Source: Bacillus gaemokensis
GTDB taxonomy: Bacteria; Bacillota; Bacilli; Bacillales; Bacillaceae_G
Reading direction: 5' to 3'
NCBI RefSeq assembly: GCF_001590835.1
Contig: NZ_LTAQ01000012.1
Coordinates: forward strand, 388,771 to 452,770
Length of the DNA: 64,000 nt
Part shown: piece after piece, positions 5,499 to 28,052 of the stretch
Layout: the number at the start of each line of letters is the position of its first letter
How positions within the stretch are numbered: the first letter of the stretch is position 1
Made by a program: the position numbers and the translations under genes
Notes under the pieces: model-generated
Databases searched by the model: none
Told to the model about the DNA's origin: nothing
Seen by the model: only the letters and a program-made list of their open reading frames with translations

Positions 5499-8400
5499 AT
5501 GAGGCAGCAGTCTTTGCATTTAGATTCAAATATTATACATGTAATCTTTGAAGAACAAGTTAATCGGACACCTAATCATACAGCGCTAGTATGCGATTAT
5601 GAAGAAATTAGTTACCAAGAGTTAAATAAAAGAGCTAATAAATTAGCTAGAGTGATTGAAAAACATAGTAATAGGAGAAACCAGATAATAGGAATTTATT
5701 TAGATAAATCAATTGAATCTGTTATTACGATGTTAGCGATATTAAAATCGGGAAATTGTTATTTGCCAATAGATGTAAATTATCCTCAAAACAGGATTGA
5801 TTATATCATTGAAGATAGCAAAATCAATATTCTAGTTAGTAGTGATAAAACAGATATACAAAAAATTAGAAATTTTGATGGGCACATACTTTATTTAGAT
5901 CAAGCCTTAATGGAACAAGAGGCGGATCATAATTTAGAAAATGTGAATGAAGAACAGGATTTAGCTTATATTATCTATACTTCAGGTACTACCGGAAACC
6001 CAAAGGGTGTTATGGTTCAACATAAAAACGTAATCGGATTAATGAAAAATACATTAATGAATTTTTCGTTTTCAAATCAAGATACTTGGTCGATTTTCCA
6101 TTCGTTTTGTTTTGATTTTTCTGTATGGGAACTGTATGGTGCACTTTTATATGGTGGAAAGGGAGTCATTATTAAAGAAAATAAAGCGAAACAAACTGGA
6201 GAATTCTTGGAAATATTAAAAAGAGAACAGGTTACAGTATTAAATCAGGTACCTTCCTCTTTCTATAATTTAATAGGTGAAGAGTTAAAATACGAAGACA
6301 AAGCACTTAACCTTAAATATATAATTTTTGGTGGAGAGGCATTGCAGCCGATAAAATTGCAAAGATTTAAAGAAAAGTACAATAATACTAAGTTTATTAA
6401 TATGTATGGAATTACTGAGACAACTGTGCACGTTACCTTTAAAGAGATAACAGATTTAGAAATAAAAAATAATAGAAGTAATATTGGAAAACCAATCGAA
6501 GGCCTTAGAATATATTTGTTAAATGAAAAAAATGAAGAAGTTGGGTTTCTTAATAAGGGAGAAATTTGTGTCGGGGGATATGGTGTTGCAAGAGGGTATT
6601 TAGGGAAAGAACAACTTACAAAAGAAAGATTTATTAGCAATCCTTTCTGTAAAGACGAGATCATTTATAAGTCCGGAGATTTAGCTATTAGATTAGAAAA
6701 CGGGGAATATGAATATTTGGGAAGAGGTGATTCCCAAGTGAAAATTCGTGGATATAGAATTGAGTTGGCAGAAATTGAAAAAGCGTTGTTGCAAAATAAA
6801 AATATAAATAAAGCAGTTGTACTGGATATTGAAAATGAGGATGGGCAAAAGGACTTATATGGTTTTTTGGCGATGAGTCATCCTTCAAAATTAAGTGAAA
6901 TAAAAGAAGCTTTATTGAAAATTATTCCAAGTTATATGCTGCCTTCCTTTTTTATTGAAATAGATCGAATCCCGACAAATCACAATGGGAAGATAGATAG
7001 AGAAGCATTGGAGCGCCAGAAAATTAACTTTATGAGAGATAATGATTTTGTTGCAGCTAGAACGAAAGTAGAAATACAAGTTATTCAACTACTTAAAGAA
7101 TTATTAAAGTTAGAACAGATTAGTATTTATGATAATTTTTTTGATATTGGTGGAGATTCTTTAAAAGCCACAAAATTAATTAATAACATAAAATCACATT
7201 TTGAAAAAACAATTACTTTTAAAGAAATTTTTGAGAGTAAACATATTGCTGAATTATGCGATATCTTAAATGAGAAGGAAGTAGAAAAAGAGGTAATAGA
7301 AAGCTTTGCAGAAAAAGAATATTACTCTGTATCATCTGCGGAAAAACGTATGTATATTTCACAGCAATATGGGGAGACGAATACAGCATATAACGTTATC
7401 ACAGCTGTGAGATTGAAGGGGAATTTAAATATACTCCATTTAGAGAAATCTTTAAATGCAGTATTAAATCATCATGAGAACCTACAATCGTATTTTACTG
7501 TTCGAGATGGGGAAATCATAAAAAAACTAGATAGAAGAGCCCAAGTTCATTTGAAGATACTATATGGGAAAGAAGAAGATATATTAAAAAATAAGGATCA
7601 AATTATTGAAGAATTTGATCTTGCGAAAGCGCCATTATTCAAAGCAGTTTTGATAAAGACTTCCGAAGAACATCATATTTTAATAATGAATTTTCATCAT
7701 ATTATAGTGGATGGGACCTCTTTAGAACTTCTATTAAAAGATATATTTAGAGAATATGCAAATCAGTCAGTCGTACCAGAAAAGATGAAATATGTAGAAT
7801 ATTCGACTTTAGAAACAACTTGGTTGGAGAGTGAACAGGGAAAAAGAGAAGAAAATTATTGGCTTAAACAGTTAGTTCCTGATTTAGGGAAATCTGAAAT
7901 TATTTCAGACTATGTAAGACCACATACAAGGAATTTTAAAGGAAAAACAGTTAATTTCAAAATTGAAGAGAAAATTATTAGTAATTTAAAGAGTGTAGCC
8001 AAAAGAGAAAAGCTAACTTTATATATGCTATTAATGGGATTATATAAAGTTTTAATATCTAAATATTCTAACAAAGAAGAAGTGACGCTTGGAACTGCTG
8101 CGTCCGGAAGAAAATATAAAAATTTAGAAAATACAGTTGGAATGTTTGTAAATACATTAGCAATCCAAAGTGAGCCATCCGCCGATAAAATCTTAGGACA
8201 TTATTTGAAGGAAGTAAAAGAAGTATGTATGAATGCTTTTGAGTATCAATCTTATCCTTTTGATAGACTTGTTGATAAGTTAGGTGTTCAAAGTGATCCT
8301 GGTAGAAATCCGTTGTTTGACTATCTGTTTATATTTCAAAATGAGGATAGGGTACAAGATTTTGAATATGTTAAAGATCTAGTCATTACGAGAGATACTA

Positions 8401-11400
8401 CAGCTATTACCGCGGATAGTTCTAGATTTGATATTAGTCTAGAAGTAATTGAAGAAAACGATATATTTATGCTCCAATTCAATTATGACGTGAATCTTTT
8501 TAAAGAAAAAACAATTAGAGGCTTAGCTTCTCATTATATTCATTTATTGTCTAATATCAACTTTACAATTTCTAAAAAAATAAAAGAAATAGAGTTAGTG
8601 ACCTCAGAAGAACAACATGTATTAGCAACGTTTAATAGAACAGAAAAAGACATTTTTGAGTATGGAGATACAATTCAAGCTTATATAAATAAAAAGTTAG
8701 AGTATGGTGGAGACAAATCAGCCGTTTATTCAAAAGGAATAGTCTATACCTACAATGATTTAGATAAACAGGCAAATCAGTTAGGAAATGTACTAAGGAA
8801 AAAAGGATTAACAAGAAATGATGTTGTTGCGATTATATTAGAAAGGAATGCAAAAATTCCTCTTAGTCTGCTTTCTGTATTACGTGCAGGAGGTGTGTGC
8901 TTACCAATTGATGCAGAATTGCCGAAAGAAAGAATTGAATATATGTTGAGAGATAGTAAAGCACGTTTCGTTATTACACAGAAGGATTTGATGGGGAAAA
9001 TAGGGGGATGGAATGAAGACTGTATCGTACTTTTAGATTGTGAATCTGCATATAGACAAGAAGAATCTACCCCATTACATGTAGTAAATGAAGCAAATGA
9101 CGTAGCGTGTATCATTTATACATCAGGTACAACAGGGAATCCAAAAGGTGTTATGTTAAAAAATAATTCTCTAATCAATGCAGCAAGATATATGGCTGAA
9201 CAACTAAATGTTAAAAATAGCAACGTTTTATCTGTAGCATCAATTTCTTTCGATATGTTTTTTATTGAAATGTTTATTGCTATCACACTCAATGGTGAAT
9301 TAGTTATTGCTGATGCTAAAGAAAGATTGGATAACGGGAAATTAAAAGATCTTATTCAGAAAAGGAACGTAGAAATTACTTTAACAACACCATCGAGAAT
9401 TAAGAGTTTTATTAATAGTGAGGATGTAGAAGCACTTAAAGGATTAAGCCGAATGATCTTTGGTGGGGAAAATTTAACTGAAAATCTTGTTGGAGAGATT
9501 AGAAAGATAACAAATGCTAAAATATATAATTTTTATGGCCCAACTGAAATTACGGCGTATTGCACAGGAACAGAAATAAAGGAAACAGAAACGGTGACGA
9601 TTGGTAAACCTGTGTCTAATACAACTATTTATATAATGAGCCCAGATTTGAAACAGCTACCTATAGGGGTACCTGGAGAAATTTGTGTAGGTGGTATTGG
9701 AGTTGCGAAGGGATATATAAATAGAGAGGAATTGACTAAGAGCAAATTTGTTGCGAATCCATATCGCTTGGAAGAAACCATATATCGAACAGGAGATATT
9801 GGTATATGGACAGAGGATGGAGAAATTAAATATATTGGTCGAATTGATGAACAAGTAAAAATTAGGGGATACAGAGTAGAGCTAGAAGAAATTGAGGAAA
9901 AGATAAGAGAAGTAGAAGGAGTAACAAATTGCGTAGTTTTAGCCTTAGAACATGCGAATGGAGAAAAGTATCTGTCTGCATATGTTATATGTGATATCAA
10001 TGGCATGGAAGAAATACAGGGAACGCTTAAAAATAAGCTACCAGAGTATATGATTCCGCATTTCTTTACAAAAATAGATGAGATTCCTGTTACGCGAAAT
10101 GGGAAAGTAGATAAACGAAAATTACAAGAAAGTAGTCCAACGAAAGAGCTGAATAGAACAGTAATAAAAGCAGAAAATAATGTTCAAGAAAAGATAATAG
10201 ATACATGGAAAAAAATATTAAATACAAATAACATTGGTATTTATGATAATTTTTTCCATCTCGGAGGAGACTCAATTAAAGCAATTCAATTGTTAAGTGC
10301 ATTAAGAAAACAAGGAATTCATACTTCAACAAAAGAGATTCTAAACAGTCCAACAATAGACGAATTATCTCAAAAAGTAAAAATAATAGAGCGGAAAAAT
10401 GAAAGAGGAATCTTTGAAGAAGTGAGCGGGAATGTTAATTTTGGAGCAATCCAAAACTTTTATCTAAATTGTAACCAAAAAATACACGATCGTTTTAATC
10501 AATCTATATTAATACATCGTGAAAATGGATTTGATGAGCATATTGTAAGAAAAGTTTTTAATACTATTATGAAACACCATGATGCTTTACGGATTATGTA
10601 TCAAATAGAGGATGAAAAATACGTTCAATTTAATAGGAAATTTGAAGAGGATATGTTCCATTTAGAGACTCACTTTTATGACAATGCAAACGTAAAAGAA
10701 GTTATAAAAGAAGTCGGTGAACATATACAAGGAAAGGTTAGTATTGAAGAAAATAAATTGGTTAGCCTCGGAGTTTTTAAAGGAAATCAGGGGGGGTATC
10801 TCTTTATAGCAATTCATCATTTTGTAGTGGACGGCGTATCTTGGCGTATTCTAGTAGAAGATTTTGAAACTATTTATGAAAGTTATGCCAATAATGAAGA
10901 ACTAAAGTTTGAACCAAAGACGGTATCCTTTAAGGAATGGGTACACAAAATAGAAAGTTATAGTAATAGCAATGACATTATGGAAGAAGTTCCATATTGG
11001 AAACGAATTATAGAACAACAAAATCTGTTGAAGATTAGAGAGAAAAAAGAAGCAGTAAAGTGCATAGGAAGAACGAAAGATATACGTATGACATTAGATA
11101 AAGAAGAAACTGAAGTGTTACTGAAACGAACAAATAAGAAGTATCATACTGAGATCAATGATATTTTACTAACAGCTTTAATGCTAGCTATTACAGAAAA
11201 TAGGAAAGAAAATAAGTTAATTATTAATTTAGAAGGACATGGTAGAGAAGAAATGATGAAAGGTATGGATGTAACTAGAACAGTAGGGTGGTTTACATCC
11301 ATGTATCCAGTACTGCTAGAACTAAAAGAAAATAAAGATATTTCATACTGGATTAGAGATATTAAAGAAACTCTAAGGAATGTTCCGAATAAAGGAATTG

Positions 11401-11816
11401 GTTACGGTGTTTTACGATATATGAAAAAGGGAAAGACTGACGTATTGCCGTTAAATGATATAGAAATTAGTTTCAACTATATGGGTGAAATTTCGAGTGT
11501 GAATGAAGAAGAATATAAGGTGTTAGATTTTGAAAGAGGTAGAGAAATTTCAGAAGATGTCAATCTTGATATTGGAATAGCGTTTAACTCAATTATAGTA
11601 GATAACCAATTAAAATTAACTATTACGTATGATGTTAATGAATATGATAGAGAATTTGTGCAGGAGTTAGGCGGAAGGTTCTTACAAAAACTACGATTAA
11701 TTAATTCTAGTTGTAAAGAAGTTGAAGAAGCTAAATATGTACCAAGTGATTTAACTTATAGTGAAATTTCTATTGATGAACTCGATTCTCTTGAAGAATA
11801 TATTAATGAAATATAA
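5499..11816 (+). CDS. nonribosomal peptide synthetase 1 (A-T-C-A-T-E), initiation protein
   Basis: A 2105-residue two-module synthetase. It begins directly with an adenylation domain (core YTSGTTG near residue 159), so it starts the chain without a condensation or acyl-loading domain. A carrier domain follows (GGDS, pantetheine Ser 554), then a condensation domain (HHIIVDG, H733-H734), a second adenylation domain (YTSGTTG near 1207), a carrier (GGDS, Ser 1592) and an epimerase domain (HHFVVDG, H1773-H1774, then EGHGRE and RTVGWFT). The last 25 residues (VPSDLT...DELDSLEEYI) look like a donor communication domain. The first adenylation pocket reads DFWNIGMVHK, the classical threonine code. The second reads about DMILIGFAYK, which I cannot assign. 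RBS GGAGGAG precedes the ATG. Confidence 0.93.
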   Translation: MRQQSLHLDSNIIHVIFEEQVNRTPNHTALVCDYEEISYQELNKRANKLARVIEKHSNRRNQIIGIYLDKSIESVITMLAILKSGNCYLPIDVNYPQNRIDYIIEDSKINILVSSDKTDIQKIRNFDGHILYLDQALMEQEADHNLENVNEEQDLAYIIYTSGTTGNPKGVMVQHKNVIGLMKNTLMNFSFSNQDTWSIFHSFCFDFSVWELYGALLYGGKGVIIKENKAKQTGEFLEILKREQVTVLNQVPSSFYNLIGEELKYEDKALNLKYIIFGGEALQPIKLQRFKEKYNNTKFINMYGITETTVHVTFKEITDLEIKNNRSNIGKPIEGLRIYLLNEKNEEVGFLNKGEICVGGYGVARGYLGKEQLTKERFISNPFCKDEIIYKSGDLAIRLENGEYEYLGRGDSQVKIRGYRIELAEIEKALLQNKNINKAVVLDIENEDGQKDLYGFLAMSHPSKLSEIKEALLKIIPSYMLPSFFIEIDRIPTNHNGKIDREALERQKINFMRDNDFVAARTKVEIQVIQLLKELLKLEQISIYDNFFDIGGDSLKATKLINNIKSHFEKTITFKEIFESKHIAELCDILNEKEVEKEVIESFAEKEYYSVSSAEKRMYISQQYGETNTAYNVITAVRLKGNLNILHLEKSLNAVLNHHENLQSYFTVRDGEIIKKLDRRAQVHLKILYGKEEDILKNKDQIIEEFDLAKAPLFKAVLIKTSEEHHILIMNFHHIIVDGTSLELLLKDIFREYANQSVVPEKMKYVEYSTLETTWLESEQGKREENYWLKQLVPDLGKSEIISDYVRPHTRNFKGKTVNFKIEEKIISNLKSVAKREKLTLYMLLMGLYKVLISKYSNKEEVTLGTAASGRKYKNLENTVGMFVNTLAIQSEPSADKILGHYLKEVKEVCMNAFEYQSYPFDRLVDKLGVQSDPGRNPLFDYLFIFQNEDRVQDFEYVKDLVITRDTTAITADSSRFDISLEVIEENDIFMLQFNYDVNLFKEKTIRGLASHYIHLLSNINFTISKKIKEIELVTSEEQHVLATFNRTEKDIFEYGDTIQAYINKKLEYGGDKSAVYSKGIVYTYNDLDKQANQLGNVLRKKGLTRNDVVAIILERNAKIPLSLLSVLRAGGVCLPIDAELPKERIEYMLRDSKARFVITQKDLMGKIGGWNEDCIVLLDCESAYRQEESTPLHVVNEANDVACIIYTSGTTGNPKGVMLKNNSLINAARYMAEQLNVKNSNVLSVASISFDMFFIEMFIAITLNGELVIADAKERLDNGKLKDLIQKRNVEITLTTPSRIKSFINSEDVEALKGLSRMIFGGENLTENLVGEIRKITNAKIYNFYGPTEITAYCTGTEIKETETVTIGKPVSNTTIYIMSPDLKQLPIGVPGEICVGGIGVAKGYINREELTKSKFVANPYRLEETIYRTGDIGIWTEDGEIKYIGRIDEQVKIRGYRVELEEIEEKIREVEGVTNCVVLALEHANGEKYLSAYVICDINGMEEIQGTLKNKLPEYMIPHFFTKIDEIPVTRNGKVDKRKLQESSPTKELNRTVIKAENNVQEKIIDTWKKILNTNNIGIYDNFFHLGGDSIKAIQLLSALRKQGIHTSTKEILNSPTIDELSQKVKIIERKNERGIFEEVSGNVNFGAIQNFYLNCNQKIHDRFNQSILIHRENGFDEHIVRKVFNTIMKHHDALRIMYQIEDEKYVQFNRKFEEDMFHLETHFYDNANVKEVIKEVGEHIQGKVSIEENKLVSLGVFKGNQGGYLFIAIHHFVVDGVSWRILVEDFETIYESYANNEELKFEPKTVSFKEWVHKIESYSNSNDIMEEVPYWKRIIEQQNLLKIREKKEAVKCIGRTKDIRMTLDKEETEVLLKRTNKKYHTEINDILLTALMLAITENRKENKLIINLEGHGREEMMKGMDVTRTVGWFTSMYPVLLELKENKDISYWIRDIKETLRNVPNKGIGYGVLRYMKKGKTDVLPLNDIEISFNYMGEISSVNEEEYKVLDFERGREISEDVNLDIGIAFNSIIVDNQLKLTITYDVNEYDREFVQELGGRFLQKLRLINSSCKEVEEAKYVPSDLTYSEISIDELDSLEEYINEI

Positions 11817-11833: not shown

Positions 11834-14800
11834 ATGAGTAAACTAGCAATTAAAGATATTTATCCTACTACTTCTATGCAAAAGTCAATTATGTTTCATT
11901 CTTTAATGAACACTGAAGATTATAAAGTAAAAATAGAATTGGAATTAGATGGACAAGTTAATGTACAAGCACTACAAAAAAGCTTTCAAGAATTAGTAAG
12001 TCGTTATGATATTTTTAGAACAATTTTTCCGCGGAAAAAAGTTAAGGAAAGTGTACAAGTCGTTCTACAAAGTAGAGAGGTAGCACTAGGTTATGTTGAT
12101 TTAAGCGAAGGGGATGATAAATCGCAAATACAAAAAATCAATGAGTATTGGAATGAAAATAGTACATTTCAATTAGAAAAAGACATTCTTGTGAAAATGG
12201 CTCTCTTTAAATTAAATAAAAAAGAGTATTCTTTACAGATTTGTTTTCATCACATCATTATGGACGGATGGTGTTTGGAGCTCTTTTTAAAAGAAATCTT
12301 TGAGCTATATCATTCCTTCGTAGAAGAAAAAGACATAATACAAAGAAGACCAAAACAATATAAGGAATATATCAACTGGCTACGAGCTCAAAATATGGAA
12401 GAGGCTGCATTGTATTGGGGGAATTATGTAGAAGGTTATGAAAAAGAAATTATCCTTCCACATTTAGGAGTAACGGAAGCATATTCTCAACAAATTGAAG
12501 AAATGATATTTGAAAAAGAAGCCTTAGAAAAAATGACCCAATTAGCTAGAGAAAATAATTTAACATTAAACACAATTGTACAGGTAGCCTGGGGGATTGT
12601 ATTGCAAAAATATACAAATGCCGATGATGTAATATTTGGATCAGTGGTATCCGGGAGAAATGTCCCGGTAGATGATGTTGAAAAAATTATGGGACTTTTC
12701 ATTAATACACTTCCTACTAGGATTAAAACAGAAAAGAAAGAAACAATTTTACAATTGTTAATCAAGCTGCAAAGAGAGAATAATAGATCAAAAGAATATG
12801 AGTACTATTCTCTCTCAGATATTCAAGAAAAAACAATATTAAAAAATAAGTTAATCCATCATATTATGGCATTTGAAAATTACGAGTTTGAATTAGAGAA
12901 CATAAATCAAAATAATGAATTAAAAGTAAAGAACCTTCAGTCTGTAGAACGAAGTAACTATCCTTTGAATTTACTTGTATACCCGGGCGAAAATTTAGTA
13001 ATGAAGTTTGTCTATAACAGTCATGTCTATGAACAAAGGTTTATTCAAAGACTGAAGGAAAGTCTGTATAAAGTGTTAAGGGGTATGCTGGATAATGTTG
13101 AACAGCCAGTTGAAGAAATAGAAATTGTAGGAGAAATAGATAATCAAAGAATACAAGAGGAGTTTAATCAAACAGAGAATGGGGCTCCAATTCGTGAAGA
13201 AACGGTACAAAAGTATATTTTAAGAAGAATGCAGGAAGCTGGTGATTCTCCAGCCCTATCTTCAAATGGGATGAGTTATTCGTATAACGAATTAAATCGA
13301 AAAACAAATCAAATTGGTCGATATATAAGAAGTAAAGGTGTACAACCAAACGGTGTTGTAGGTATTTTGATGAAGAGGACTGCGAAGGCTCCATTAGCAA
13401 TCTTAGGAGTTTTAAAAGCTGGAGCGGCGTATCTTCCTATAGATGCTACATTACCGAAAGAAAGAGCAGAGTATATGCTCAAAGATAGTGGTGTAAATCT
13501 TCTTATCACAGATAGAGAGTTAGAAAGCGGGTTTAATTTCCAAGGGGAAGTTATAAATATAGATGATGAATTCATTTCTCAGGAATGTGATGAAGCGATT
13601 GAAGTGCTAAGTAGTAAAGAGGATTTAAGTTATGTAATTTATACTTCTGGCACAACAGGAAGGCCGAAAGGAGTAGGTGTTCGAAATCAGTCTCTTTTAA
13701 ATACAGCTGAGGAAACACATATCAGATTAGGGGAACGAGCTGGTGGAGTCTTATCTACAGCTTCGATTTCATTTGATATGTTTACAATGGAGTTATTTAT
13801 TGCAATTGCCGGGAAACAAGAGCTTGTAATTGCAGATGAAGAACAAAGAATGGATAACATTTTACTTTGTGACTTAATAGAAAAAAAAGATATTGTGACG
13901 CTTTGTATGACACCTTCAAGAATTGAATCTATCGTTCATGATCGTAGATGTACAAATGCCTTAAAGAAAATTAAAGTCATAAAATTCGGTGGAGAAGTGT
14001 TGCAGGATAGTACAGTAAAGAGATTGCAGGAAAAGACAAATGCTCGAATTTTTAATGGATATGGTCCAACAGAAGTAACTATCTATTGTACATTGCAAGA
14101 AATTAAAAAAGGTGAAAAGGTGACAATCGGAAAGCCTATATCGAATATGCAGGTATTTATATTGGATAAAAATCAGAATGTTATGCCAATAGGGGTGCCA
14201 GGAGAGATTTGTGTAGGGGGCATAGGGGTAGCAAAAGGATATTTAGGAAATGAAGATTTAACGAATCAGAAGTTTGTAGATATGCGGCATGTAACAAAAG
14301 GAAAGTTATATAAAACGGGTGATTTAGGAAGATGGACGGAAACTGGTGAACTCGAATATTTAGGGAGAGTAGATGAACAAGTAAAAATTCGAGGTTATCG
14401 TGTAGAGCTTGAAGAAATAGAGAGCCAAATAAAAAATTTGAATGGTATCAATCAGTGTGCTGTTTTAGGAATTACGTATGAAGGTAGTGTAACAAAAAGC
14501 TTAGTAGCATTTGTGACAAGTAAGCTAGAAGTAGAAGAAGATAAAATGAAAAAGAATTTGTTAAAAAGTCTACCTGAGTATATGATTCCTTCTCGTATTT
14601 TGTGCGTAGATCATATACCAATTACGACAAATGGCAAGGTAAATAAAAAGGCGCTAGAAGGAATTGCTAAAGAAAAGTTACATGTATCGGCATATAAGAA
14701 AGCAGTATCCGAGGTTCAAAAAGAAATTGAAGAAGTTTGGAGAGAGTTGCTATTTATTGAAAATATATCTATTGAGCAATCTTTCTTTGAAATAGGTGGT

Positions 14801-17800
14801 AACTCGATATTAGCGATGATGCTTTCTTCAAGATTGAGTGAGAAATTTAATAAAAATATTTCGGTAAAAGACATTTTTACAAACGATACAATTGCAAAAT
14901 TAGAAAGAGTAATTGTTGAGAATGCAAAGGGAAATATAAGTAAAGCTGCGTTAATAGAGAATGTAGGAAAGAAAGAATATTATCCAGTTTCTAGTGCTGA
15001 AAAAAGAATATACTTGCTCGACCAGTATGAAAATGGAAAAGCATATAATTTAATTAAAGCTTTTAATATTTATGGGCAATTAGATGTTCTGAAGTTAAAG
15101 AAAAGTATACAAAAATTAATAGGTATCCATGAAAATCTAAAAGGAAGCTTTAAATTTATTGAAGAAAATTTAGTGAAAGTCCTCAATGAAGAAAATTTGG
15201 TAGAAGTAAAACATTATACGATGACAGAAAATGAGCTGTTTGAACAAAGCGAATTTTTAATAGAAGATTTCGATTTATCAACAGGTCCGTTAGTAAAACC
15301 AGTATTAATTGAAATGAAAGATACAGAGTATCAATACGTTCTCATTCTAAACTTCCATCATATCATCGTGGACGGAAGATCGTTAGAAACAATTACAAAT
15401 GATTTGTTCAAGTTATATAACGATGAAGAAATAGAAGCGAGTAGAGTTAGATATGTTGATTATGCTAGTTGGGAAAATGAATGGAAAGAAACAAAAGAGG
15501 AAGAAGAAAGATTTTGGATTGAAAGTTTAAGGGATACACCTTCTAATATAGAATTAGCTACCGATTATAGACGGCCGGTAGTGAAAAAATTTACTGGGAA
15601 TACTTTAGAGTTCAAAGTGGACGATGAAATATTTTCTAATTTAAAGGTAGTAGCGAAACAAGAAAAAGTTACCTTATATATGCTCCTAATAAGTGCCTAT
15701 AATCTATTGTTATCGAAGTATACAGGAAAGGAAGACATTGTATTAGGAACTGTTGTAAATGGAAGAACATCCAAGGAGTTAGAAACTACCGTGGGTATGT
15801 TTGTAAATACATTAGCTCTTAGAAGTTTTCCAAAAAGAGATCTTACGTTTAAAGAATATATAGCTGCGTTCAAAAAGATTTGTATAGAAGCTTTTAATCA
15901 TCAAGCATATCCTTTCGATGAACTTGTGGAAAAGTTACAACTAGATTCTAATCCGAGTAAAAACCCTCTTTTTGATTACTTGTTTATTTTACAAGAGGGA
16001 GAAAATGAAGTAATTAAAACGAATGGATTAAGGGTAGAAAATAGTACAAACAAATTCCTGCCGAATGTATCCAAATTTGATATAACGTTAGAAGCAATTC
16101 AAGAAGAAGTGGGGCTTGTGCTTCAAGTAAACTATGACACGTGCTTATTTAAAGAAGAAACAATTCAAAGCATAGTCAACAATTATATTCATATTCTTAA
16201 GCATGTGAATGCAGTGTTAGAACAGGAAATAAAACACATTGAAGTTGTAGAAGAAAAAGAGAAAAAAGATATTCTGTTTGGGTTTAACCAACTAGAGATA
16301 GATGATTTTGAAGAGGAACGTACAATCCAAAAATATATTGGTAGAAAATTGCATTCAGGAAATGATAAAAATGCTTTATATGTCAAAGGTGTAGCGTATA
16401 CATTTGCAGAGCTTGATAAGAGATCAAATCAAGTAGCGCGATGCCTTAGAAAAAAAGGGATTAGATCAAATGATGTAGTGGCATTAGTTATGGAACGTAG
16501 TGTCGATGTTATAGTTGGAATATTAGGGATTTTGAAAGCGGGAGGGGCATATTTACCGATTGATGGAGAAACGCCTCGAGAAAGAATTGAATATATTCTA
16601 AAAGATAGTGAAACGGTTCTTGTTATGACACAAAAGAAATTCCAAGAAAAGTTTCAATACGACAGAGACATTGTTACATTGGATGAGATGTACATGGAAA
16701 GTCATGCAGATCTAGAAATAATGAGTGATTCAAATGATACTGCTTATGTCATATATACTTCGGGAACAACAGGGAAACCAAAAGGGGCAATGGTGAAAAA
16801 TATTTCTTTACTAAATATTGTGAAGGATGCTGTTGAACAGGCTGAAGTGGATAAACAAACAGGTGCGTTATTATCAATGACATCTATTGCATTTGATATG
16901 TTTACTATTGAAGTATTCCTGGCTTTAGGATTAAATGAGGAATTTATTTTTACCGATGAGAGAGAAAGAATGGACAACGAAGTCATTACTCAGTTAATTA
17001 ATGATAGAAATGTAAATACAATGTGGATGACCCCTTCACGAGTAACCACTTTCTTGCAGGGAGAAGAAAGTATTAGGATTTTGCAAAAATTAAAACGGAT
17101 CTATTTGGCTGGAGAAGCGATTAAAGAAGGGGTTCTTAAAGATGTATTAGAGTTAACTGATGCAAGAATCTTCAATATATATGGGCCAACAGAAACAACG
17201 ATTTATTGCACTAGTAAGGAGTTTCGTGAGGATGGTCCAGATTTAACAATAGGAAGACCAGTGAAAAATGTACAGATATATATATTGGATAAGAATTTAA
17301 ATATTGTACCTATTGGTGTACCTGGTGAAATATGTATTGGTGGAATAGGAGTAAGTAAAGGGTACTTAAATAATAAAGATTTAACGAACGAGAAGTTTAT
17401 AGAGAACCCATTTAAACCGGGTGAAAAAATGTATAAATCTGGTGATTTAGGTAGTTGGACTCTAGATGGTCAAATTAAATATTTAGGAAGAATTGACCAA
17501 CAGGTGAAAATTCGAGGATATAGAATAGAGCTGGGAGAAATAGAGACAAACATTAGAGGGCTGAAAGATGTATCTGATTGTGCTGTTTTAGCCATTGAAC
17601 GAGAAAATGGGAATACATTTTTATCAGCGTATATCGTAGGGGATGTTGATTCGAAAGATGTGCAGCGTGCATTAGAGAAAAATCTACCAGGGTATATGAT
17701 TCCAGAGTATATAACGAAAATTGATAAAATGCCTATTACATTGAATGGGAAAATTGATAAGAAAAAATTAAAAGAAGTAAAAATCCAAGAAGATATAAAA

Positions 17801-19492: not shown

Positions 19493-19504
19493 AAGAAGGG
19501 TACG

Positions 19505-19543: not shown

Positions 19544-19629
19544 ATGTTCTTTTCTAGTATTAGACAATAAGAATTTTTTCATTTGTTCAATCATTAGATT
19601 TTGTTTTTAATGAGAGAGGAGAAGTATTT

Positions 19630-22600
19630 ATGTCCGCCAAAACAATGATAAAAGAGATGTATCAGACAACCGATATGCAAAAAGGAATGATTTTTCATTC
19701 CCTTATGAATGATAGTGGAGAATATTGTGTCTTGTTAGATATTCGTTTAAAGGGAAATTTGAATGTTGAAGTACTAGAGAAGAGTTTCAATATAATGATA
19801 GAAAATTACGATGTTTTTAGAACATTGTTTATATATAAGAAAACGGAAACACCCCTTCAAGTTGTATTGAAAGAAAGAAAAGGAACTATATATTTTGAAG
19901 ATTTATCAGATCTTGAGGAATCTACCAAAAGTTTAAAAATGAAAACATATTGGGAAGGAAATAAAGGGTTTGATTTGCAAAAAGATTTATTAATGAAAAT
20001 CGGTATTTTCAAATTAAGCGAAGATGAGTATTCTTTACAACTTTATTTTCATCATATTATTTTAGATGGCTGGTGTATGGGAATCTTTCTAGGGGAATTT
20101 TTTGACACATATACAAAATTGAAAAACGGAATAGCGATAAAACCCGTACCAAAATTCCAATATAAAACTTACATGTCGTGGTTGAAAGCACAAGATATGG
20201 ATGAGGCAAAGAAATATTGGGAGGAATATATCGAAGATTATAATAATGTTTTGAATTTCCCTATGAAATATAATACTCAAAATTCGATGTATAAACAAAA
20301 TGCAGCTTATGTCGAGATAAAGGGAGAAGCCTTTCAAAACCTAATTCATATAGCGCAGAATAATTATTTAACATTAAATACTGTTTTACAATCAGCTTGG
20401 GGAATCGTACTTCAAAAATACTTTAATATGAATGATGTTGTATTTGGAACGGTGACTTCTGGGCGAAATATTCCATTAGATGGAATTGAAAAGGCGCTAG
20501 GTTTATTCATTAATACACTTCCGACAAGAATAAAAACAGAGGAAGATGACACAATTCTATCTTTAATGAAAAAAGTTCAAGAACGCAGTAATGCAGGAAG
20601 AGATTATGAGTACTATTCATTAGTGGATATTCAAGAAAAAACAGCAGTTGGAAATGAATTAATTAATCATATTATGGCTTTTGAGAATTATCCTTTTGAA
20701 CAAAAGAAAACGGATGAAGATAGTGATTTTGTGATTACTGGATTTCATGGGCAGGAGAAAACAAATTATCACTTGAATATAAAAGCAGTTATGCTAGAGG
20801 GAATGCTGCAAATAGAATTTCTTTATAATGAATTTGTTTTTGAAGAGAAAACAATTATGAGACTCAAAGGTTTTCTTGAAAAAATATTAAATGAGATAAG
20901 TAACGATTCCTCTAAAAAAATCAGAAAGATTGAAATGATAGAAAAAGAAGAAAAACAAAAAATATTAAATGAATTCAATTGTACGAATTCCGTTATTTTA
21001 GATAATGAAGATACTGTTCAAAAGTATGTTCAACGAACATTACAGATGGGTGGCAATAAAACGGCTATATATTGTAAAGATGCGGAGATTTCTTATGCAG
21101 AACTAGATGAAAAGACGACACAAATTGGAAGGGTTTTGAGAGATAAAGGAATTAAGAGAAATGATGTTGTTGGTATTGTAATGAATCGGGGAGTAGAAGT
21201 AGCTTTAGGTATATTAGGGGTATTGAAGGCGGGAGGAGCATATCTTCCAATTGATGCTACTTTGCCTAAAGATAGAATTAATTTTCTGTTAAAAGATAGC
21301 AAAGCTTCTATTGTATTAAGCCAAAAAAATATATTGAAGAATTTTGAATTTGATGGTGAAGTTTTAGCGTTAGACGTGCCAGAAACTTATAACCAAGCAA
21401 GCTTAGATCTGTTAGAGAATTTGAATGAGCCAGAGGATTCAGCATACGTCATTTATACCTCTGGAACAACTGGAACACCAAAGGGAGTTGTATTGAAAAA
21501 TATAGCACTTGTGAATATTACGAAGGATTTAGTAACGAAAATGGACTTGAAAAAAGGTGGAGTGTTATCCACGGCTTCCATTTCATTCGATATGTTTTCT
21601 ATGGAATTTTTTATGAGTCTTGGCTTATTGGGGGAATTTGTTATTGCGGATCATGAGGAACGAATGGATAACCTTCATTTGAGTAGGCTCATTGAGCAGC
21701 GTAATGTCAAAGTTATGTGGATGACTCCTTCTCGAGTAGCTACGTTTTTATATGACGAAAAAAATAGAAATACGCTAAACAAATTACAGAGAATTTGTTT
21801 AGGTGGTGAAGCTTTAAAGGAGAATGTTTTAGAGGAATTATGGGAGCAAACTGATGCTAAAATCTTTAACTTTTATGGACCTACAGAAATAACGGTCTAT
21901 TGTACAGCTAAAGAAATGAAGCCAGGAGAAAAAGAGATTACAATTGGATCACCAATATCGAATAGTGAAATATATATTGTTGGGAATGATGGGAACTTAT
22001 GTCCAATAGGTGTACCAGGTGAAATTTTAGTGGGCGGTATTGGATTGGCAAAAGAATATTTGAATCGGGAAGATCTTACACAAGAAAAATTTGTAGCTAA
22101 TCCATATAAAAAAGGAGAAAAGGTCTATAAAACAGGAGATTTGGGATGCTGGACATCAGCAGGAGAAATTAAATATATTGGTAGAATTGATGAACAAATA
22201 AAAATTCGTGGGAATCGTGTTGAAATCGGGGAGATAGAAGAAAGTCTGAAAAAAATTGAAGGAATTCGGGATTGTGTCGTTTTAGTACTGGATAAGGATA
22301 ATGGAGAAAAAGTGTTGTCCGCGTATATAGTTGGTGAGGAAGAAGATCAAGTTTTTATAAAAAATGAATTATCAAAAGAATTGCCAAGTTATATGATTCC
22401 TTCACATATAACAAATGTTGAAAGTATACCGATTACAGTGAACGGTAAGGTTGATAAAAAGGAGTTACAAAAAGTTAATATTGAAATGAGAAATCTAGAA
22501 CACGAAGAACCGATTAATCAATTGCAAAAACAAATAAAAATGGTTTGGGAGAAGATTTTGGGGCAAGAGAGAATTGGAATTAACCAAAGCTTTTTTGATA

Positions 22601-25600
22601 TCGGAGGAAGTTCTATTACAGCAATGAAGCTCTCTTCAAAATTAGGAGAGGTGTTTAAAAAAGAAGTTTCTGTTAAAGATATCTTTGTATATGAGACAAT
22701 TGCCAAACAAGAAGAGTTTTTAGAAAAAATGGGTGAAAAGCGTAGAGAAAGAAAAATAAAGCCTATTGGAGAAAAAGCGTACTATAAGACTTCTTCAGCA
22801 GAAAAAAGAATGTATCTTCTACAACAATATGGAACAAATAACAAAGCATATAACACTATGGTAGCTTTTGATATTTATGGGAATTTGGATAGTGAAGAAT
22901 TAGAATATAAGCTAAACCTTCTCATTGAAAGACATCAAAATTTGAAATCTCAATATGAGATTCAAAATGAAGAGTTAATGAAGTGTATCAATCAAAGTGT
23001 AAGAATAAAATTGAAAAAGTACGAGATGAATGAAGAAGAAATCTTAGATTACAAAGATAAAATTATCGAAGCTTTTGATTTAACAAATCCACCATTAATA
23101 AAGGCGGTATTGATAAAGGTTGAAAATGAAAAACATGTATTGGTACTTAATTTTCACCATATTGTAGTAGATGGACTATCGATGAAGATATTGGTAGATG
23201 ATTTTCTAGCATTATATAAAGGAGATACATTGAATATTAATCCTTTACGGTATGTTGATTATGCTCATTGGGAACATGAGTGGAAACTGAGCTCTGAGAA
23301 AGAAAAGGAAGAAAAGTATTGGTTGAACATGTTAAATGATGAAGTGGAAAAATTACAAATTAGAACGGATTATGAGCGACCTCAAATCAAACAATTTAAA
23401 GGTAAGATGTTACAATTCCCGATCGAAACATCTACGGTTAATGATCTTAAAAAAATATGTAAACAAGAAAAAACTACAATGTATATGCTTATGCTTAGTA
23501 TGTATAAATTATTGTTATCAAAATATAGTGGCAAGGAAGATGTTTTGATTGGCACAGTTGCTTCTGGTCGAAAGGCAGAAGAATTAGAAAATATAGTGGG
23601 GATGTTTGTAAATACATTACCTTTAAGAAGCAAAGTAAGTGGTGAGAAACAGTTCAAGGATTATTTACAAGAAATAAAGAAATTATGTGTAGAATCTTTT
23701 GTTCATCAAATGTATCCTTTTGATGAATTAATAAAAAAGTTAAATGTTGAAATAGATTCAAGTAGTAATCCACTTTTTGATTATTTATTTGTATATCAAA
23801 ATAGTGAAAAATCTCTACTTAATGAGAAAATAAAAGATATTGAAATAAAGAGTAGTAATTTGAATTTAGTACCGGATATTTCTAAATTCGATATCAGTTT
23901 GGAAGTTTTTGAAGAAGAAAATGGAATGCAATGTTTTGTGAACTACGATGTTGATTTGTTTAAAGAGAGTACAATTAGAATGTTTATGAATCATTTTAAT
24001 TACTTATTAAAAAGTATTGCTTTTAATATCAATAAAAAAATTAAAGATATTCAACTGGTAGATACAGAAGAGAAACGAAAATTATTGAGTCATATTAGTT
24101 CGGGTCGAGCGGAAAATGTAAAGGCAGAAGACGTATTACAAGAACGTATTAAACATTATGGAATAGCAAATTCGAAAGATAAAGCGCTCGTCTTTAAGGG
24201 GAAATCTATTAACTATGAACAATTGAATAAGAAGACAAATCAGCTCGCTCATCTTTTGAGAAAATCTGGAGTCGGAAGAAATAAAATTGTTGCGATTGTA
24301 ATGGAACGGGGCTTAGAAGTCCCACTTGCTATGATAGGTGTATTAAAAGCAGGTGGTGCATATCTTCCGATCGACGTAGATTTACCTAGAGAAAGAATTG
24401 AATATATGCTGCGTGATAGTGGGGCGTGTGTCGTATTAACTCAGAGTCGAGTGAAAAATAATTTTCATTTTGCTGGAGAGGTATTGGAGTTAGATGGGGA
24501 AAGTGTATATGCAAAGGAAAGTGAAGAAGACGTTAGTTCTGTCAATGAAATAGAAGATTTAGCATACATCATTTATACATCAGGAACAACTGGAGAACCA
24601 AAAGGAGTTATGCTAACAAATAAATCTTTAACAAATTTATTAAAAGACTCGATTCAAAGGTTTCAATTTTCAACAGAAGAAGTAGGAATCGCCCTGTCTT
24701 CTATATCATTTGATATGTTTTCTTCAGAATTATTTATACTTTTATATAATAAAGGTACAGTAATTATTACTGATAATGAAGAAAGATTAGATGTTATAAA
24801 CATTATTGAATTAATGAAGAGATATGCAGTTACGAGTATTTTAACCACTCCATCAAGAATCTCGACAGCGTTACATTTATTCCAAAACAGTGGTGTGCTG
24901 AAGAATATGAAGAGAATAATGTTTGGTGGAGAAAGCTTACCTTCTGATTTAGTTGAGAAACTACAACGCGATTACTCAATGTGTATTTTTAATCTGTATG
25001 GACCAAGTGAGGCCACAATGCATTGTACAAGTAAAAAGATTATTGATCGGGACAATATCACAATTGGTAGACCAATTAATAATACGGAAATATATATATT
25101 AAATCATGATTTGCAGCTTGTACCAGTAGGTGTGGTAGGGGAGATATGTATTGGTGGATTTGGGATAGCGCAAGGTTATTTGCAAAAAGAGGAACTTACA
25201 AATGAGAAATTTGTAGAAAATCCGTATGTGAATGGAGAAAAAATTTATAAGACTGGCGATGTTGGCTATTGGAATGAAAGCGGAGAGATTGTTTATCTTG
25301 GAAGAAATGATGAACAAATTAAAATCCGTGGATATAGAGTAGAGCCTGAGGAAATTCAGGAAAAGTTAAATAATATGCCAGAAGTAAAAGATTCGGTTGT
25401 ATTAGCATGTAAGGAAGATAGTGGCGAAACATATCTTGTTGCGTATGTAGTAACGGATGTATCAAATATGAACAATATAAGGGGAGCATTGGAACATCTT
25501 GTACCAAATTATATGGTTCCTAAATATTTTACAAAGGTAGATAATATCCCTATTACAATAAACGGAAAGATTGATAAAAAGAAATTAGGAAGTTTAAAAG

Positions 25601-27162
25601 TTGAAAAATTAGAACGTAAGAATCTTAAACAACCTGAAAATTTGAGACAGCAAGTATTAGTTGATATCATAAAATCTGTTTTAACTGTAGATGAGATTAG
25701 TCTCGATGATCATTTTCTTTATATAGGAGGAGATTCCTTTAAAGCGATTGATATAATTGCGAAATTACGAAAAGAGGGTTTGACTGTAGGGGTAGGTAAG
25801 TTTTTGAGCAGCTCAACGATTGAAGAGATTAGTTTTGAATTGAAAGAAATGGAAGACGTTAATACAGAGGAAATAATAGCTGATACCAAATTAAGTCCGA
25901 TGCATAAGAAGGTTATGGAGCATAATGATGAGAAGGCAATTAATAGCTTTACCCAAGCTATTCTCCTTGTTAATCATGATGGGTTTGTTGAAGATATTGT
26001 TCAGACAAACTTTGAAAATATTTTAAAACATCATGATATCTTAAGAGCAAATTATGTTAGAAAAGGTGAAATGACTCAAGTTATTAGAGGGATGAAAGAG
26101 CGAAATGATATTTATAAGCTTCATGTATATCAACTACATGAAGAAGAATTGGAAGAAAAGCAAATCGAGAAAATATATAGCGAGTTAAAAGCGGATATTG
26201 CAGTTGATAAACATTTAATAAAATTAGCAATCTTTAAAGGGGCTAAAAAGGATTATCTCTTATTTATCATACATCATTTCTTAATGGATACAGTTTCATG
26301 GATGATTATATTAGAGGACTTTATAGATGGATATAGCAAGCTGATAAATAATCAGGCTGCAGATTTAGGTCGAAAATCTTCTCCTTATTCAAAGTGGATT
26401 GAAGCAATTTATGAGTACGGAAATAGTCAAGAAATTTTAGGCTCATATCAGCATTGGGAGCAAATCGAAAAAGAATTTAAGGATGATGAAATTAGATTTA
26501 GGAATATGGGTAATATGAAGTTGCTGACGAGAGAATTTACAAAAGAAGAGACAATGGCTATCAAAAAAGTACAACAATTGTATTCAGTAAAGTTTGAAAA
26601 TATATTACTTGCAGCATTTGGAACACGTTTAAAAGAGATCGAGGGGAAAGAAAGAATTCTTATTGAAAAGGAAAGTCATGGACGGAACCTGGATTTTGAT
26701 GGAGTTAACTTATCGAATACCATAGGTTGGTTTACATCCCCTTATCCATTTGTAATAGATGTTTCGAATGAAGATATAGTAGAGAATATGAAAAGTGTTA
26801 ATAAAGATTCTGAACAAGTTCCTAGATACGGAAGAGATTATTCTATACTGCGATATATAAGGGAAGCAAAGGATTATCAATTTAAATTGGAACCTAAGTA
26901 TGTGTTTAATCATTTGGGAGAAGTGAAAAACAAGCTGTACGAAGATCATAAGTTGTCACTAGCAAATATAGAACTTGATAATAATCCAAGTGATAATTAT
27001 AAAGTTAATTATTCTATCTATACGTTTTCACGTATTGATAACGATATGTTAAGAATTAATATTCAATATAATACTGCTGAGTATGACGATAGTGCAATGG
27101 AAGAATTTATTTCTAGTTATCAAGAGGGTATATTAAATATTACAAATGGATGTTTAGTGTAA
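19630..27162 (+). CDS. nonribosomal peptide synthetase 3 (C-A-T-C-A-T-E), final elongation protein
   Basis: A 2510-residue two-module protein. In order: C (HHIILDG, H141), A (YTSGTTG near 609), carrier with GGSS (Ser 995), C (HHIVVDG, H1176), A (near 1649; YGPSEA in place of YGPTE), carrier GGDS (Ser 2036), and a C-terminal E-like domain. The E domain departs from the other two: its active-site motif is HHFLMDTVSW (H2215-H2216, T2221 where Gly is usual), and ESHGR replaces EGHGR. The protein ends just after this domain, with no thioesterase, reductase, terminal condensation or communication segment. Pockets read about DMMWCGFVYK and DMSLMGLMHK. It starts 137 bp after synthetase 2, with RBS GAGAGGAG. 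Confidence 0.92.
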   Translation: MSAKTMIKEMYQTTDMQKGMIFHSLMNDSGEYCVLLDIRLKGNLNVEVLEKSFNIMIENYDVFRTLFIYKKTETPLQVVLKERKGTIYFEDLSDLEESTKSLKMKTYWEGNKGFDLQKDLLMKIGIFKLSEDEYSLQLYFHHIILDGWCMGIFLGEFFDTYTKLKNGIAIKPVPKFQYKTYMSWLKAQDMDEAKKYWEEYIEDYNNVLNFPMKYNTQNSMYKQNAAYVEIKGEAFQNLIHIAQNNYLTLNTVLQSAWGIVLQKYFNMNDVVFGTVTSGRNIPLDGIEKALGLFINTLPTRIKTEEDDTILSLMKKVQERSNAGRDYEYYSLVDIQEKTAVGNELINHIMAFENYPFEQKKTDEDSDFVITGFHGQEKTNYHLNIKAVMLEGMLQIEFLYNEFVFEEKTIMRLKGFLEKILNEISNDSSKKIRKIEMIEKEEKQKILNEFNCTNSVILDNEDTVQKYVQRTLQMGGNKTAIYCKDAEISYAELDEKTTQIGRVLRDKGIKRNDVVGIVMNRGVEVALGILGVLKAGGAYLPIDATLPKDRINFLLKDSKASIVLSQKNILKNFEFDGEVLALDVPETYNQASLDLLENLNEPEDSAYVIYTSGTTGTPKGVVLKNIALVNITKDLVTKMDLKKGGVLSTASISFDMFSMEFFMSLGLLGEFVIADHEERMDNLHLSRLIEQRNVKVMWMTPSRVATFLYDEKNRNTLNKLQRICLGGEALKENVLEELWEQTDAKIFNFYGPTEITVYCTAKEMKPGEKEITIGSPISNSEIYIVGNDGNLCPIGVPGEILVGGIGLAKEYLNREDLTQEKFVANPYKKGEKVYKTGDLGCWTSAGEIKYIGRIDEQIKIRGNRVEIGEIEESLKKIEGIRDCVVLVLDKDNGEKVLSAYIVGEEEDQVFIKNELSKELPSYMIPSHITNVESIPITVNGKVDKKELQKVNIEMRNLEHEEPINQLQKQIKMVWEKILGQERIGINQSFFDIGGSSITAMKLSSKLGEVFKKEVSVKDIFVYETIAKQEEFLEKMGEKRRERKIKPIGEKAYYKTSSAEKRMYLLQQYGTNNKAYNTMVAFDIYGNLDSEELEYKLNLLIERHQNLKSQYEIQNEELMKCINQSVRIKLKKYEMNEEEILDYKDKIIEAFDLTNPPLIKAVLIKVENEKHVLVLNFHHIVVDGLSMKILVDDFLALYKGDTLNINPLRYVDYAHWEHEWKLSSEKEKEEKYWLNMLNDEVEKLQIRTDYERPQIKQFKGKMLQFPIETSTVNDLKKICKQEKTTMYMLMLSMYKLLLSKYSGKEDVLIGTVASGRKAEELENIVGMFVNTLPLRSKVSGEKQFKDYLQEIKKLCVESFVHQMYPFDELIKKLNVEIDSSSNPLFDYLFVYQNSEKSLLNEKIKDIEIKSSNLNLVPDISKFDISLEVFEEENGMQCFVNYDVDLFKESTIRMFMNHFNYLLKSIAFNINKKIKDIQLVDTEEKRKLLSHISSGRAENVKAEDVLQERIKHYGIANSKDKALVFKGKSINYEQLNKKTNQLAHLLRKSGVGRNKIVAIVMERGLEVPLAMIGVLKAGGAYLPIDVDLPRERIEYMLRDSGACVVLTQSRVKNNFHFAGEVLELDGESVYAKESEEDVSSVNEIEDLAYIIYTSGTTGEPKGVMLTNKSLTNLLKDSIQRFQFSTEEVGIALSSISFDMFSSELFILLYNKGTVIITDNEERLDVINIIELMKRYAVTSILTTPSRISTALHLFQNSGVLKNMKRIMFGGESLPSDLVEKLQRDYSMCIFNLYGPSEATMHCTSKKIIDRDNITIGRPINNTEIYILNHDLQLVPVGVVGEICIGGFGIAQGYLQKEELTNEKFVENPYVNGEKIYKTGDVGYWNESGEIVYLGRNDEQIKIRGYRVEPEEIQEKLNNMPEVKDSVVLACKEDSGETYLVAYVVTDVSNMNNIRGALEHLVPNYMVPKYFTKVDNIPITINGKIDKKKLGSLKVEKLERKNLKQPENLRQQVLVDIIKSVLTVDEISLDDHFLYIGGDSFKAIDIIAKLRKEGLTVGVGKFLSSSTIEEISFELKEMEDVNTEEIIADTKLSPMHKKVMEHNDEKAINSFTQAILLVNHDGFVEDIVQTNFENILKHHDILRANYVRKGEMTQVIRGMKERNDIYKLHVYQLHEEELEEKQIEKIYSELKADIAVDKHLIKLAIFKGAKKDYLLFIIHHFLMDTVSWMIILEDFIDGYSKLINNQAADLGRKSSPYSKWIEAIYEYGNSQEILGSYQHWEQIEKEFKDDEIRFRNMGNMKLLTREFTKEETMAIKKVQQLYSVKFENILLAAFGTRLKEIEGKERILIEKESHGRNLDFDGVNLSNTIGWFTSPYPFVIDVSNEDIVENMKSVNKDSEQVPRYGRDYSILRYIREAKDYQFKLEPKYVFNHLGEVKNKLYEDHKLSLANIELDNNPSDNYKVNYSIYTFSRIDNDMLRINIQYNTAEYDDSAMEEFISSYQEGILNITNGCLV

Positions 27163-27184
27163 CTGAGATCAAAATGTGTTAGTT

Positions 27185-27260: not shown

Positions 27261-27326
27261 AAAAGGTACACTTGTACAAAAGAGGATGGGATGAATTAAT
27301 AATTTAAACAGAGGAGATAGGTATAT

Positions 27327-28052
27327 ATGGGGAATTTTAATTTATTTTGCTTTCCGTTCGCGGGTGGTTCTTCAACATATTATTTAAAATGGGCAAATGA
27401 TATTAATGATTCTATAGATTTGCATTTAATAGAATTAGCTGGAAGAGGGAGGAGGATTAATGAACCATTATATAATAATGTGAATGAAATAGTTGTTGAT
27501 ATATACGAACAAATTAATGAGGAGCTCTCAGAAAAACCATATGCTTTTTTTGGTCATAGTATGGGGAGCTTAATTGCGTACGAATTGACACGTTACATCC
27601 ATCAAAAGCAGAATAGCCTTCCTACCCATGTGTTTTTTTCGGGAAGCAATCCACCTCATAAAAGATTAAAGAGCTTTGTTCATCAACTAACGGATGAAAA
27701 ATTAAAACAAAAGATGATGTTGTTGGAGGGAACTCCTAAAGAAGTACTTGAATGTGAAGAATTAATGGAATTGATCTTGCCTATTTTTAAAGCCGATTTT
27801 AAGGTAACGGAAGAATATAGATGTGACTTACAGCGAGAGTATCTGAAATTATCTTGCCCTATAACAGTTTTAAATGGTACACAAGATGCGATGATAGATT
27901 TTCATGATATAGGAGAATGGAGCAAGTTCACAACAGAAGACTGTAATTTTCGACAGTTTGTCGGAGGGCACTTTTTTATCAATGAACACATGAGAGATGT
28001 TGTTGAAATTATTAATGCTACAATGGTAGAAAAACAAAAGCAGTTCATCTGA
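27327..28052 (+). CDS. type II thioesterase of the NRPS cluster (GrsT/SrfAD-like)
   Basis: A 241-residue alpha/beta-hydrolase of the stand-alone NRPS thioesterase family. It opens NLFCFPFAGGSS, has the nucleophile elbow GHSMG with Ser 78, a catalytic Asp in NGTQDAMID and a His in GGHFFI. Such enzymes hydrolyse misprimed acyl groups from carrier domains. Because the last synthetase lacks a release domain, this protein could also release the product, but that is inference. RBS GAGGAGA precedes ATG 27327. It follows synthetase 3 after 164 bp. Confidence 0.92.
   Translation: MGNFNLFCFPFAGGSSTYYLKWANDINDSIDLHLIELAGRGRRINEPLYNNVNEIVVDIYEQINEELSEKPYAFFGHSMGSLIAYELTRYIHQKQNSLPTHVFFSGSNPPHKRLKSFVHQLTDEKLKQKMMLLEGTPKEVLECEELMELILPIFKADFKVTEEYRCDLQREYLKLSCPITVLNGTQDAMIDFHDIGEWSKFTTEDCNFRQFVGGHFFINEHMRDVVEIINATMVEKQKQFI

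What the first reader, a model, noticed from the sequence alone, without database searches (positions are those of the whole stretch)
5499..28052. Six-module NRPS cluster that does not match a Bacillus pathway I know
The sequence shows A-T-C-A-T-E / C-A-T-C-A-T-E / C-A-T-C-A-T-E plus a type II thioesterase. Epimerase domains end all three proteins, giving strict L,D alternation over six residues. There is no lipo-initiation C domain, so it is not a kurstakin- or surfactin-type lipopeptide line, and it lacks the architectures of bacitracin, bacillibactin, koranimine and cereulide. Regular D/L alternation is a pattern of membrane-active or channel-forming peptides.
Basis: partly seen in the sequence, partly recalled or inferred. 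Interest (0 to 1): 0.85.

Follow-up and report, generated by a model that had tools for sequence, protein, structure and literature searches.

The report
Orphan six-module peptide assembly line
A stretch of DNA from the Bacillus cereus group carries what looks like an acquired set of genes for an unidentified six-residue peptide of alternating left- and right-handed amino acids, with no built-in domain to release the finished chain; it looks like a new member of a well-known enzyme class rather than a new kind of system.

Summary
Three NRPS genes (5499-27162) read A-T-C-A-T-E / C-A-T-C-A-T-E / C-A-T-C-A-T-E, followed by a discrete type II-like thioesterase (27327-28052). C-domain types fit the E domains, so an L,D,L,D,L,D hexapeptide is predicted; module 1 has the canonical Thr pocket code (DFWNIGMVHK). 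(1) No release domain: the third protein stops right after its E domain and lacks the docking tail of 25 of 26 other E-ending proteins examined. (2) A2-A6 form one clade with Met at pocket position 236, seen in 0 of 101 fetched A domains; their substrates cannot be read from known codes. (3) The last E domain is diverged but keeps its catalytic motifs. (4) The cluster lies between an intact aldo/keto reductase gene and a second, 90%-identical copy of that gene's 3' end, an insertion-like footprint. Best fetched A-domain relatives are 49% (A1) and 45% (A2-A6) identical, but no cereus-group genome was seen in the collections, so novelty within that group is untested. Membrane or channel activity was not tested. 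Verdict: a real orphan NRPS, probably acquired; how the chain is released is the open question.

The parts
3636..4475 (+). aldo/keto reductase gene, intact; its 3' end (4334-4475) is the left copy of the direct repeat
   Evidence: PF00248; blastn 128/143 identity to 28105-28247
4476..5498 (.). AT-rich leader of the island (GC 22.7%) with one terminator-like hairpin at 4999-5030
5499..11816 (+). NRPS protein 1, A1-T1-C2-A2-T2-E2 (A1 5532-7028, C2 7311-8618, A2 8646-10142, E2 10392-11798)
   Evidence: domain bounds set by me
11736..11813 (+). docking (COM donor-like) tail of protein 1, VPSDL...
   Evidence: the name COM is recalled
11834..19492 (+). NRPS protein 2, C3-A3-T3-C4-A4-T4-E4 (C3 11846-13168, A3 13196-14668, C4 14981-16288, A4 16316-17788, E4 18026-19453)
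   Evidence: domain bounds set by me
19394..19489 (+). docking (COM donor-like) tail of protein 2, TPSDF...
19630..27162 (+). NRPS protein 3, C5-A5-T5-C6-A6-T6-E6 (C5 19642-20979, A5 21001-22479, C6 22777-24099, A6 24127-25599, E6 25852-27159); no docking tail, no TE
   Evidence: domain bounds set by me
27327..28052 (+). discrete type II-like thioesterase, GHSMG and GGHF motifs
   Evidence: PDB relatives include RifR and the surfactin discrete TE
28105..28247 (+). second copy of the aldo/keto reductase 3' end (remnant ending in the stop codon), right copy of the direct repeat
28260..28301 (+). perfect 18-nt inverted repeat ending in a T run just after the remnant, terminator-like

Best explanation
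This is a complete three-protein NRPS line, probably brought into a B. cereus-group genome by recombination at the 3' end of an aldo/keto reductase gene. Protein 1 loads L-Thr without acylation, and the chain is extended to L-Thr-D-X2-L-X3-D-X4-L-X5-D-X6. Docking tails pass it from protein 1 to 2 to 3. Protein 3 is the end of the line: it holds a hexapeptidyl thioester with a D-configured last residue and has no cis release domain. Most likely the neighbouring discrete thioesterase releases the peptide in trans, giving a linear (less likely cyclic) hexapeptide. Shown from sequence: domain order, E and C types, Thr code, absence of TE, reductase and docking tail in protein 3, and the duplicated 3' end. 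Inferred: activity, stereochemistry of the product, release route, horizontal origin, any biological role.
For: Domains and motifs. Thr code of A1, same code in its 10 best-scoring fetched A domains. C3/C5 versus C2/C4/C6 split; in the coordinates printed there, 4 of 4 foreign matches of C3 and 3 of 4 of C5 start within about 105 bases behind a printed E match, and 0 of 12 of C2, C4 and C6 do. Protein 3 ends 296 aa after its last HH motif, against 322-344 in 26 of 26 other E-ending proteins in the fetched loci and 333 and 344 in proteins 1 and 2; 25 of the 26 carry a [SA]D[FVY] tail by my reading of the printout (22 of the 26 come from 11 loci of related genomes, so they are not independent). 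E6 aligns best to known E domains and keeps HHxxxD and ExHGR. Direct repeat flanking the cluster, 128 of 143 identical; longest exact shared word 38 against at most 18 in 181 random pairs of stretches of the same window. GC 31.6% against 36.8% (left) and 35.7% (right). A2-A6 monophyletic among 107 A domains, support 1.0.
Against: Discrete TEs of this family are usually proofreading enzymes, not release enzymes (recalled), so giving release to it is an inference from absence. E6 is only 28-30% identical to E2 and E4, which share 45%, and has DG-to-DT and EGHGR-to-ESHGR changes, so a D residue at position 6 is less certain. Third-position GC of the cluster genes (0.22-0.29) overlaps that of the flanking genes measured (0.25-0.39), and two flanking transporter genes have total GC of 34-35%, so composition is weak evidence of foreign origin. 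No integrase or transposase family appeared among the 44 proteins scanned. No exporter, regulator or resistance gene sits inside the repeat. Expression was not tested.
Confidence: 0.62

Rival explanations
1. The hexapeptide is closed head-to-tail by a separate trans cyclase (for example a penicillin-binding-protein-type thioesterase) encoded elsewhere in the genome, giving a cyclic D,L-alternating hexapeptide.
For: Stereochemistry fits: PBP-type TEs join an N-terminal L residue to a C-terminal D residue and act in trans, whereas cis TEs join N-terminal D to C-terminal L (PMC11735501 section 7, part 1 of 2 read). The predicted chain starts L and ends D with no cis TE.
Against: No beta-lactamase/PBP family among the 44 window proteins scanned with Pfam (44 of the 54 ORFs of 100 aa or more; the other 10 overlap larger genes). 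The own genome is not held. One paper search gave no Bacillus example among its 4 listed papers.
Confidence: 0.2
2. The line has lost its end: an ancestral terminal TE or further module was deleted and the cluster is decaying or makes little product.
For: Protein 3 ends directly after a diverged E domain; a recombination-like scar lies 40-53 bases beyond the discrete TE stop.
Against: All four reading frames are intact over 22.5 kb, with core motifs kept in all six A and T domains, all C and E domains and the thioesterase.
Confidence: 0.15
3. It is a known or already catalogued cereus-group cluster that the collections here do not hold.
For: No cereus-group genome was seen: the Dps-like protein reaches at most 68% in the 19 genomes of the family searched against 94% to B. 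anthracis Dlp-1, and no cereus-group title is among the 80 loci kept. A survey of 1,566 Bacillus genomes reports unknown NRPS clusters in under 5% of cereus strains and many singletons, most of them apparently acquired by transfer (PMC5686519, passages; the genome number from its abstract).
Against: None of the papers seen describes this module order, but I saw search listings and passages or single sections of six papers only. The new clusters listed in PMC12206863 section 15 differ.
Confidence: 0.3

Closest known systems
Tyrocidine, gramicidin S and bacitracin synthetases (Bacillota NRPS with E-ended proteins)
   Same: A/T/C/E domain kinds; they supply the closest solved relatives of several domains
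   Different: Those lines end in a cis TE (recalled); here none. The A2-A6 pocket class was not seen in 101 fetched A domains.
Linear gramicidin synthetase (LgrA-D)
   Same: Long run of L,D alternation (recalled); LgrA is the top solved match of protein 1
   Different: Lgr starts with a formylation domain and ends with a reductase, and makes a 15-mer (recalled); neither domain is here.
Surugamide/desotamide-type lines released by PBP-type thioesterases
   Same: Chain begins with an L and ends with a D residue and is released in trans (their rule)
   Different: Known cases are actinobacterial as I recall; no PBP-type TE gene among the window proteins scanned.
Predicted B. velezensis/B. [quoted passage not shown]
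   Same: Six residues, predicted L,D alternation, no starter C domain (section 15 read)
   Different: Begins with Val and involves a PKS part; sequences not compared here.
Predicted Thr-X-Asn-Asn tetrapeptide cluster of B. cereus plasmids (PMC12206863)
   Same: Three genes, starts with Thr, cereus group (section 15)
   Different: Four modules instead of six; sequences not compared; no plasmid DNA match to this cluster in PLSDB.
Kurstakin
   Same: Host group
   Different: A cyclic lipoheptapeptide (PMC10672896, passages); no lipo-initiation domain here.

Membership tests
Nonribosomal peptide synthetase | Repeated A, T and C domains with catalytic motifs | tested here: met
Linear-gramicidin-type synthetase | N-terminal formylation domain and terminal reductase domain | tested here: not met
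   Pfam hits of the three proteins hold neither; that these define it is recalled
Lipopeptide (surfactin/kurstakin-type) line | Starter C domain or acyl ligase before the first A domain | tested here: not met
   protein 1 begins with A1 at residue 12 or 17
Cis-TE-terminated line (tyrocidine, bacitracin) | C-terminal thioesterase on the last NRPS protein | tested here: not met
   protein 3 ends with E6
PBP-type-TE-released line | L first residue and D last residue, no cis TE | tested here: met
   predicted from domains only; rule from PMC11735501
PBP-type-TE-released line | PBP-type TE encoded in the genome | tested here: inconclusive
   none among the 44 window proteins scanned; genome not held
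Type II thioesterase | Discrete alpha/beta hydrolase with GxSxG and His, near an NRPS | tested here: met
Channel- or membrane-active D,L peptide | Activity on membranes | not testable with these tools
   no product, five of six residues unknown

The most novel reading that the evidence does not exclude
A Bacillus assembly line that ends in an epimerase and relies on a trans enzyme to close a strictly D,L-alternating hexapeptide ring, built with a new A-domain pocket class (Met236); such rings can in principle stack into tubes (recalled), which would make this a natural counterpart of designed cyclic D,L-peptides.
Probability: 0.1. Interest if true: 0.75.

Novelty: new member of a known kind. 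Interest (0 to 1): 0.42.

Why it matters
If functional it adds an uncharacterised peptide to a much-studied group, a set of A domains whose specificity current codes do not predict, and a Bacillota case of chain release without a cis thioesterase, where the role of a discrete thioesterase as release enzyme can be tested directly. As an orphan NRPS it is otherwise an ordinary kind of find.

Tried and rejected
Relatives sought. Whole cluster as DNA in plasmids: no match. Plasmids by protein, best-ranked rows: 34.6% for protein 2 (30 of 2,758 records listed), 37.9% for the thioesterase (15 of 587 listed), 40.0% for A5 (12 of 31 listed). Whole genomes with protein 2: 19 of 19 of one family match at E<=0.001, at most 36% in the rows listed; 12 of 398 at E<=1e-180, at most 36%; 45 of 80 at E<=1e-250, at most 38%. 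With A5: 13 of 398 at E<=1e-108, at most 42%; 12 of 391, at most 43%; 0 of 394 at E<=1e-125 (the tool warns that this empty answer shows nothing; the centre genome itself has 40-41% matches at weaker E). The draws are samples, and no cereus-group genome was seen in them.

Rejected: a PlcR-type regulatory box (6 matches with up to one mismatch in the window against 5.5 expected, none in the leader); sigma-70-like promoters in the leader (11 found, 11.5 expected), so no promoter can be named. Reading A2-A6 as glycine modules because most of their best-scoring fetched relatives have DILQxGxxWK codes (glycine, recalled): the pocket residues differ, and epimerising glycine would be pointless. The 101 fetched A domains come from loci that were mostly brought in by similarity to protein 2 or A5 and include overlapping copies (L139/L147, L140/L148, L141/L150, L142/L149).

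Full report
What is there. The window holds three NRPS genes at 5499-11816, 11834-19492 and 19630-27162 and a thioesterase gene at 27327-28052, all on the + strand. Pfam gives two A and two T domains in each NRPS and 2, 3 and 3 Condensation-family stretches, E domains included.

Stereochemistry. E2 and E4 are 45% identical to each other and carry standard motifs; E6 is 28-30% identical to them. Among solved structures E6 matches the synthetases of bacitracin, tyrocidine and gramicidin S best (203 to 164 bits; next are PvdL chains at about 100 bits), in stretches I take to be their E domains, and keeps the HHxxxD and ExHGR residues. The C domains fall into two sets, C3/C5 and C2/C4/C6 (42-47% within, 21-27% between). 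In the printed coordinates, 4 of 4 foreign matches of C3 and 3 of 4 of C5 start within about 105 bases behind a printed E match; 0 of 12 of C2, C4 and C6 do. The N-terminal motifs of C3 and C5 (YPTTSMQ..FHSL, YQTTDMQ..FHSL) are of the kind I recall for D,L-condensing domains. This supports L,D alternation; it remains a prediction.

Building blocks. Pocket codes read from an alignment of the six domains with 101 fetched A domains: A1 DFWNIGMVHK, A2 DMILIGFAYK, A3 DMMCKGGIYK, A4 DMIWYAIIYK, A5 DMMWCGFVYK, A6 DMSLMGLMHK. A1's ten best-scoring fetched relatives share its code, which I recall as threonine. Met at position 236 occurs in 5 of 6 domains here, in 0 of 101 fetched domains (some overlapping copies) and in 0 of 61 distinct domains by an earlier count on the loci then held. 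A2-A6 form one clade in a FastTree tree of 107 domains (support 1.0) and share 45-53% identity with each other, against at most 45% in the ten best-scoring fetched domains of each (A4 to L143). They probably arose by module duplication within this lineage. Most of their best-scoring relatives are of glycine type (recalled), but the pockets differ, so X2-X6 stay unknown.

Where the line starts and ends. Protein 1 starts with an A domain and has no C or acyl-loading domain. Proteins 1 and 2 end with a docking-like tail (VPSDL, TPSDF). Protein 3 does not: it stops 296 residues after its last HH motif, whereas 26 of 26 other E-ending proteins found in the fetched loci stop at 322-344, and 25 of them (all but the one of L102) carry a comparable [SA]D[FVY] tail by my reading. 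These loci were fetched by similarity to protein 2, and 22 of the 26 come from 11 related loci, so they are neither random nor independent. One search counted 32 E-like domains in all, of which these 26 end their ORF. Protein 3 is therefore most likely the end of the line, and it has no TE or reductase.

Release. The only release candidate in the cluster is the discrete thioesterase, which has GHSMG and GGHF motifs and solved relatives that include RifR and the surfactin discrete TE. Enzymes of this kind usually hydrolyse misloaded carriers (recalled). A PBP-type TE would suit an L-first, D-last chain (PMC11735501, section 7 part 1 of 2 read), but no such family appeared among the 44 window proteins scanned, and the genome is not held.

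Origin. The last 142 bases of the aldo/keto reductase gene left of the cluster recur right of it (4334-4475 and 28105-28247; 128 of 143 aligned positions identical), with the second copy followed by a terminator-like hairpin. The longest exact shared word is 38 bases; in 181 random pairs of stretches from the same window it was at most 18. The cluster's GC is 31.6%, the flanks' 36.8% and 35.7%, the leader's 22.7%; but third-position GC overlaps (0.22-0.29 in the cluster, 0.25-0.39 in 14 flanking genes). This looks like insertion at the 3' end of the reductase gene. No integrase or transposase family was seen among the proteins scanned, which copy is the original cannot be told, and an older tandem duplication of the reductase is not excluded.

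Host. The Dps-like protein at 39958-40395 matches B. anthracis Dlp-1 at 134 of 142 positions by my count of the printed alignment (that Dlp-1 is from B. anthracis is recalled). This places the window in the cereus group but not in a species. The 19 genomes of the family searched have at most 68%, and no cereus-group title is among the 80 loci kept, so the cluster's spread within the group is untested.

Relatives and literature. No close relative appeared in plasmids, viral contigs, or the genomes sampled around four centres (an Ectobacillus, a Clostridium and a Paenibacillus by the titles, and the unnamed G159). Papers: PMC12206863 (passages and section 15), PMC11735501 (passages and part 1 of section 7), PMC10672896, PMC7643830, PMC5686519 and PMC8949500 (passages), others as search listings. 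None that I saw describes this line; most of the literature was not searchable.

Judgement. A real and apparently intact orphan NRPS. The membrane or channel reading is an analogy. The features worth a specialist's attention are the missing release domain and the Met236 A-domain clade. New member of a known kind.

Noticed in passing
4334-4475 and 28105-28247: Direct repeat of an aldo/keto reductase 3' end on both sides of the NRPS cluster.
   Followed up: yes
28092-28110 and 28142-28160: Perfect 19-nt inverted repeat at the right junction; its right arm lies inside the reductase remnant, so the left arm may be a template-switch scar.
   Followed up: partly
28301-28744: ORF of 147 aa on the minus strand holding only the C-terminal part of an FtsX-like permease, probably a remnant.
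   Followed up: no
19493-19629 and 27163-27326: Intergenic stretches within the NRPS operon hold inverted repeats (for example GGGGCTC...GAGCCCC followed by a T run before the thioesterase gene), possible attenuators; read by eye.
   Followed up: no
47528-47800: T-box leader (RF00230) before a methionyl-tRNA synthetase-like gene at 47853-49487.
   Followed up: no
45371-46310: AraC-type regulator region 83-84% identical to genes on four Priestia and Peribacillus plasmids.
   Followed up: no
33326-36036: Two neighbouring nucleoside transporter genes of the same Pfam families.
   Followed up: no
29072-29983: Protein with a thioester domain (TED).
   Followed up: no
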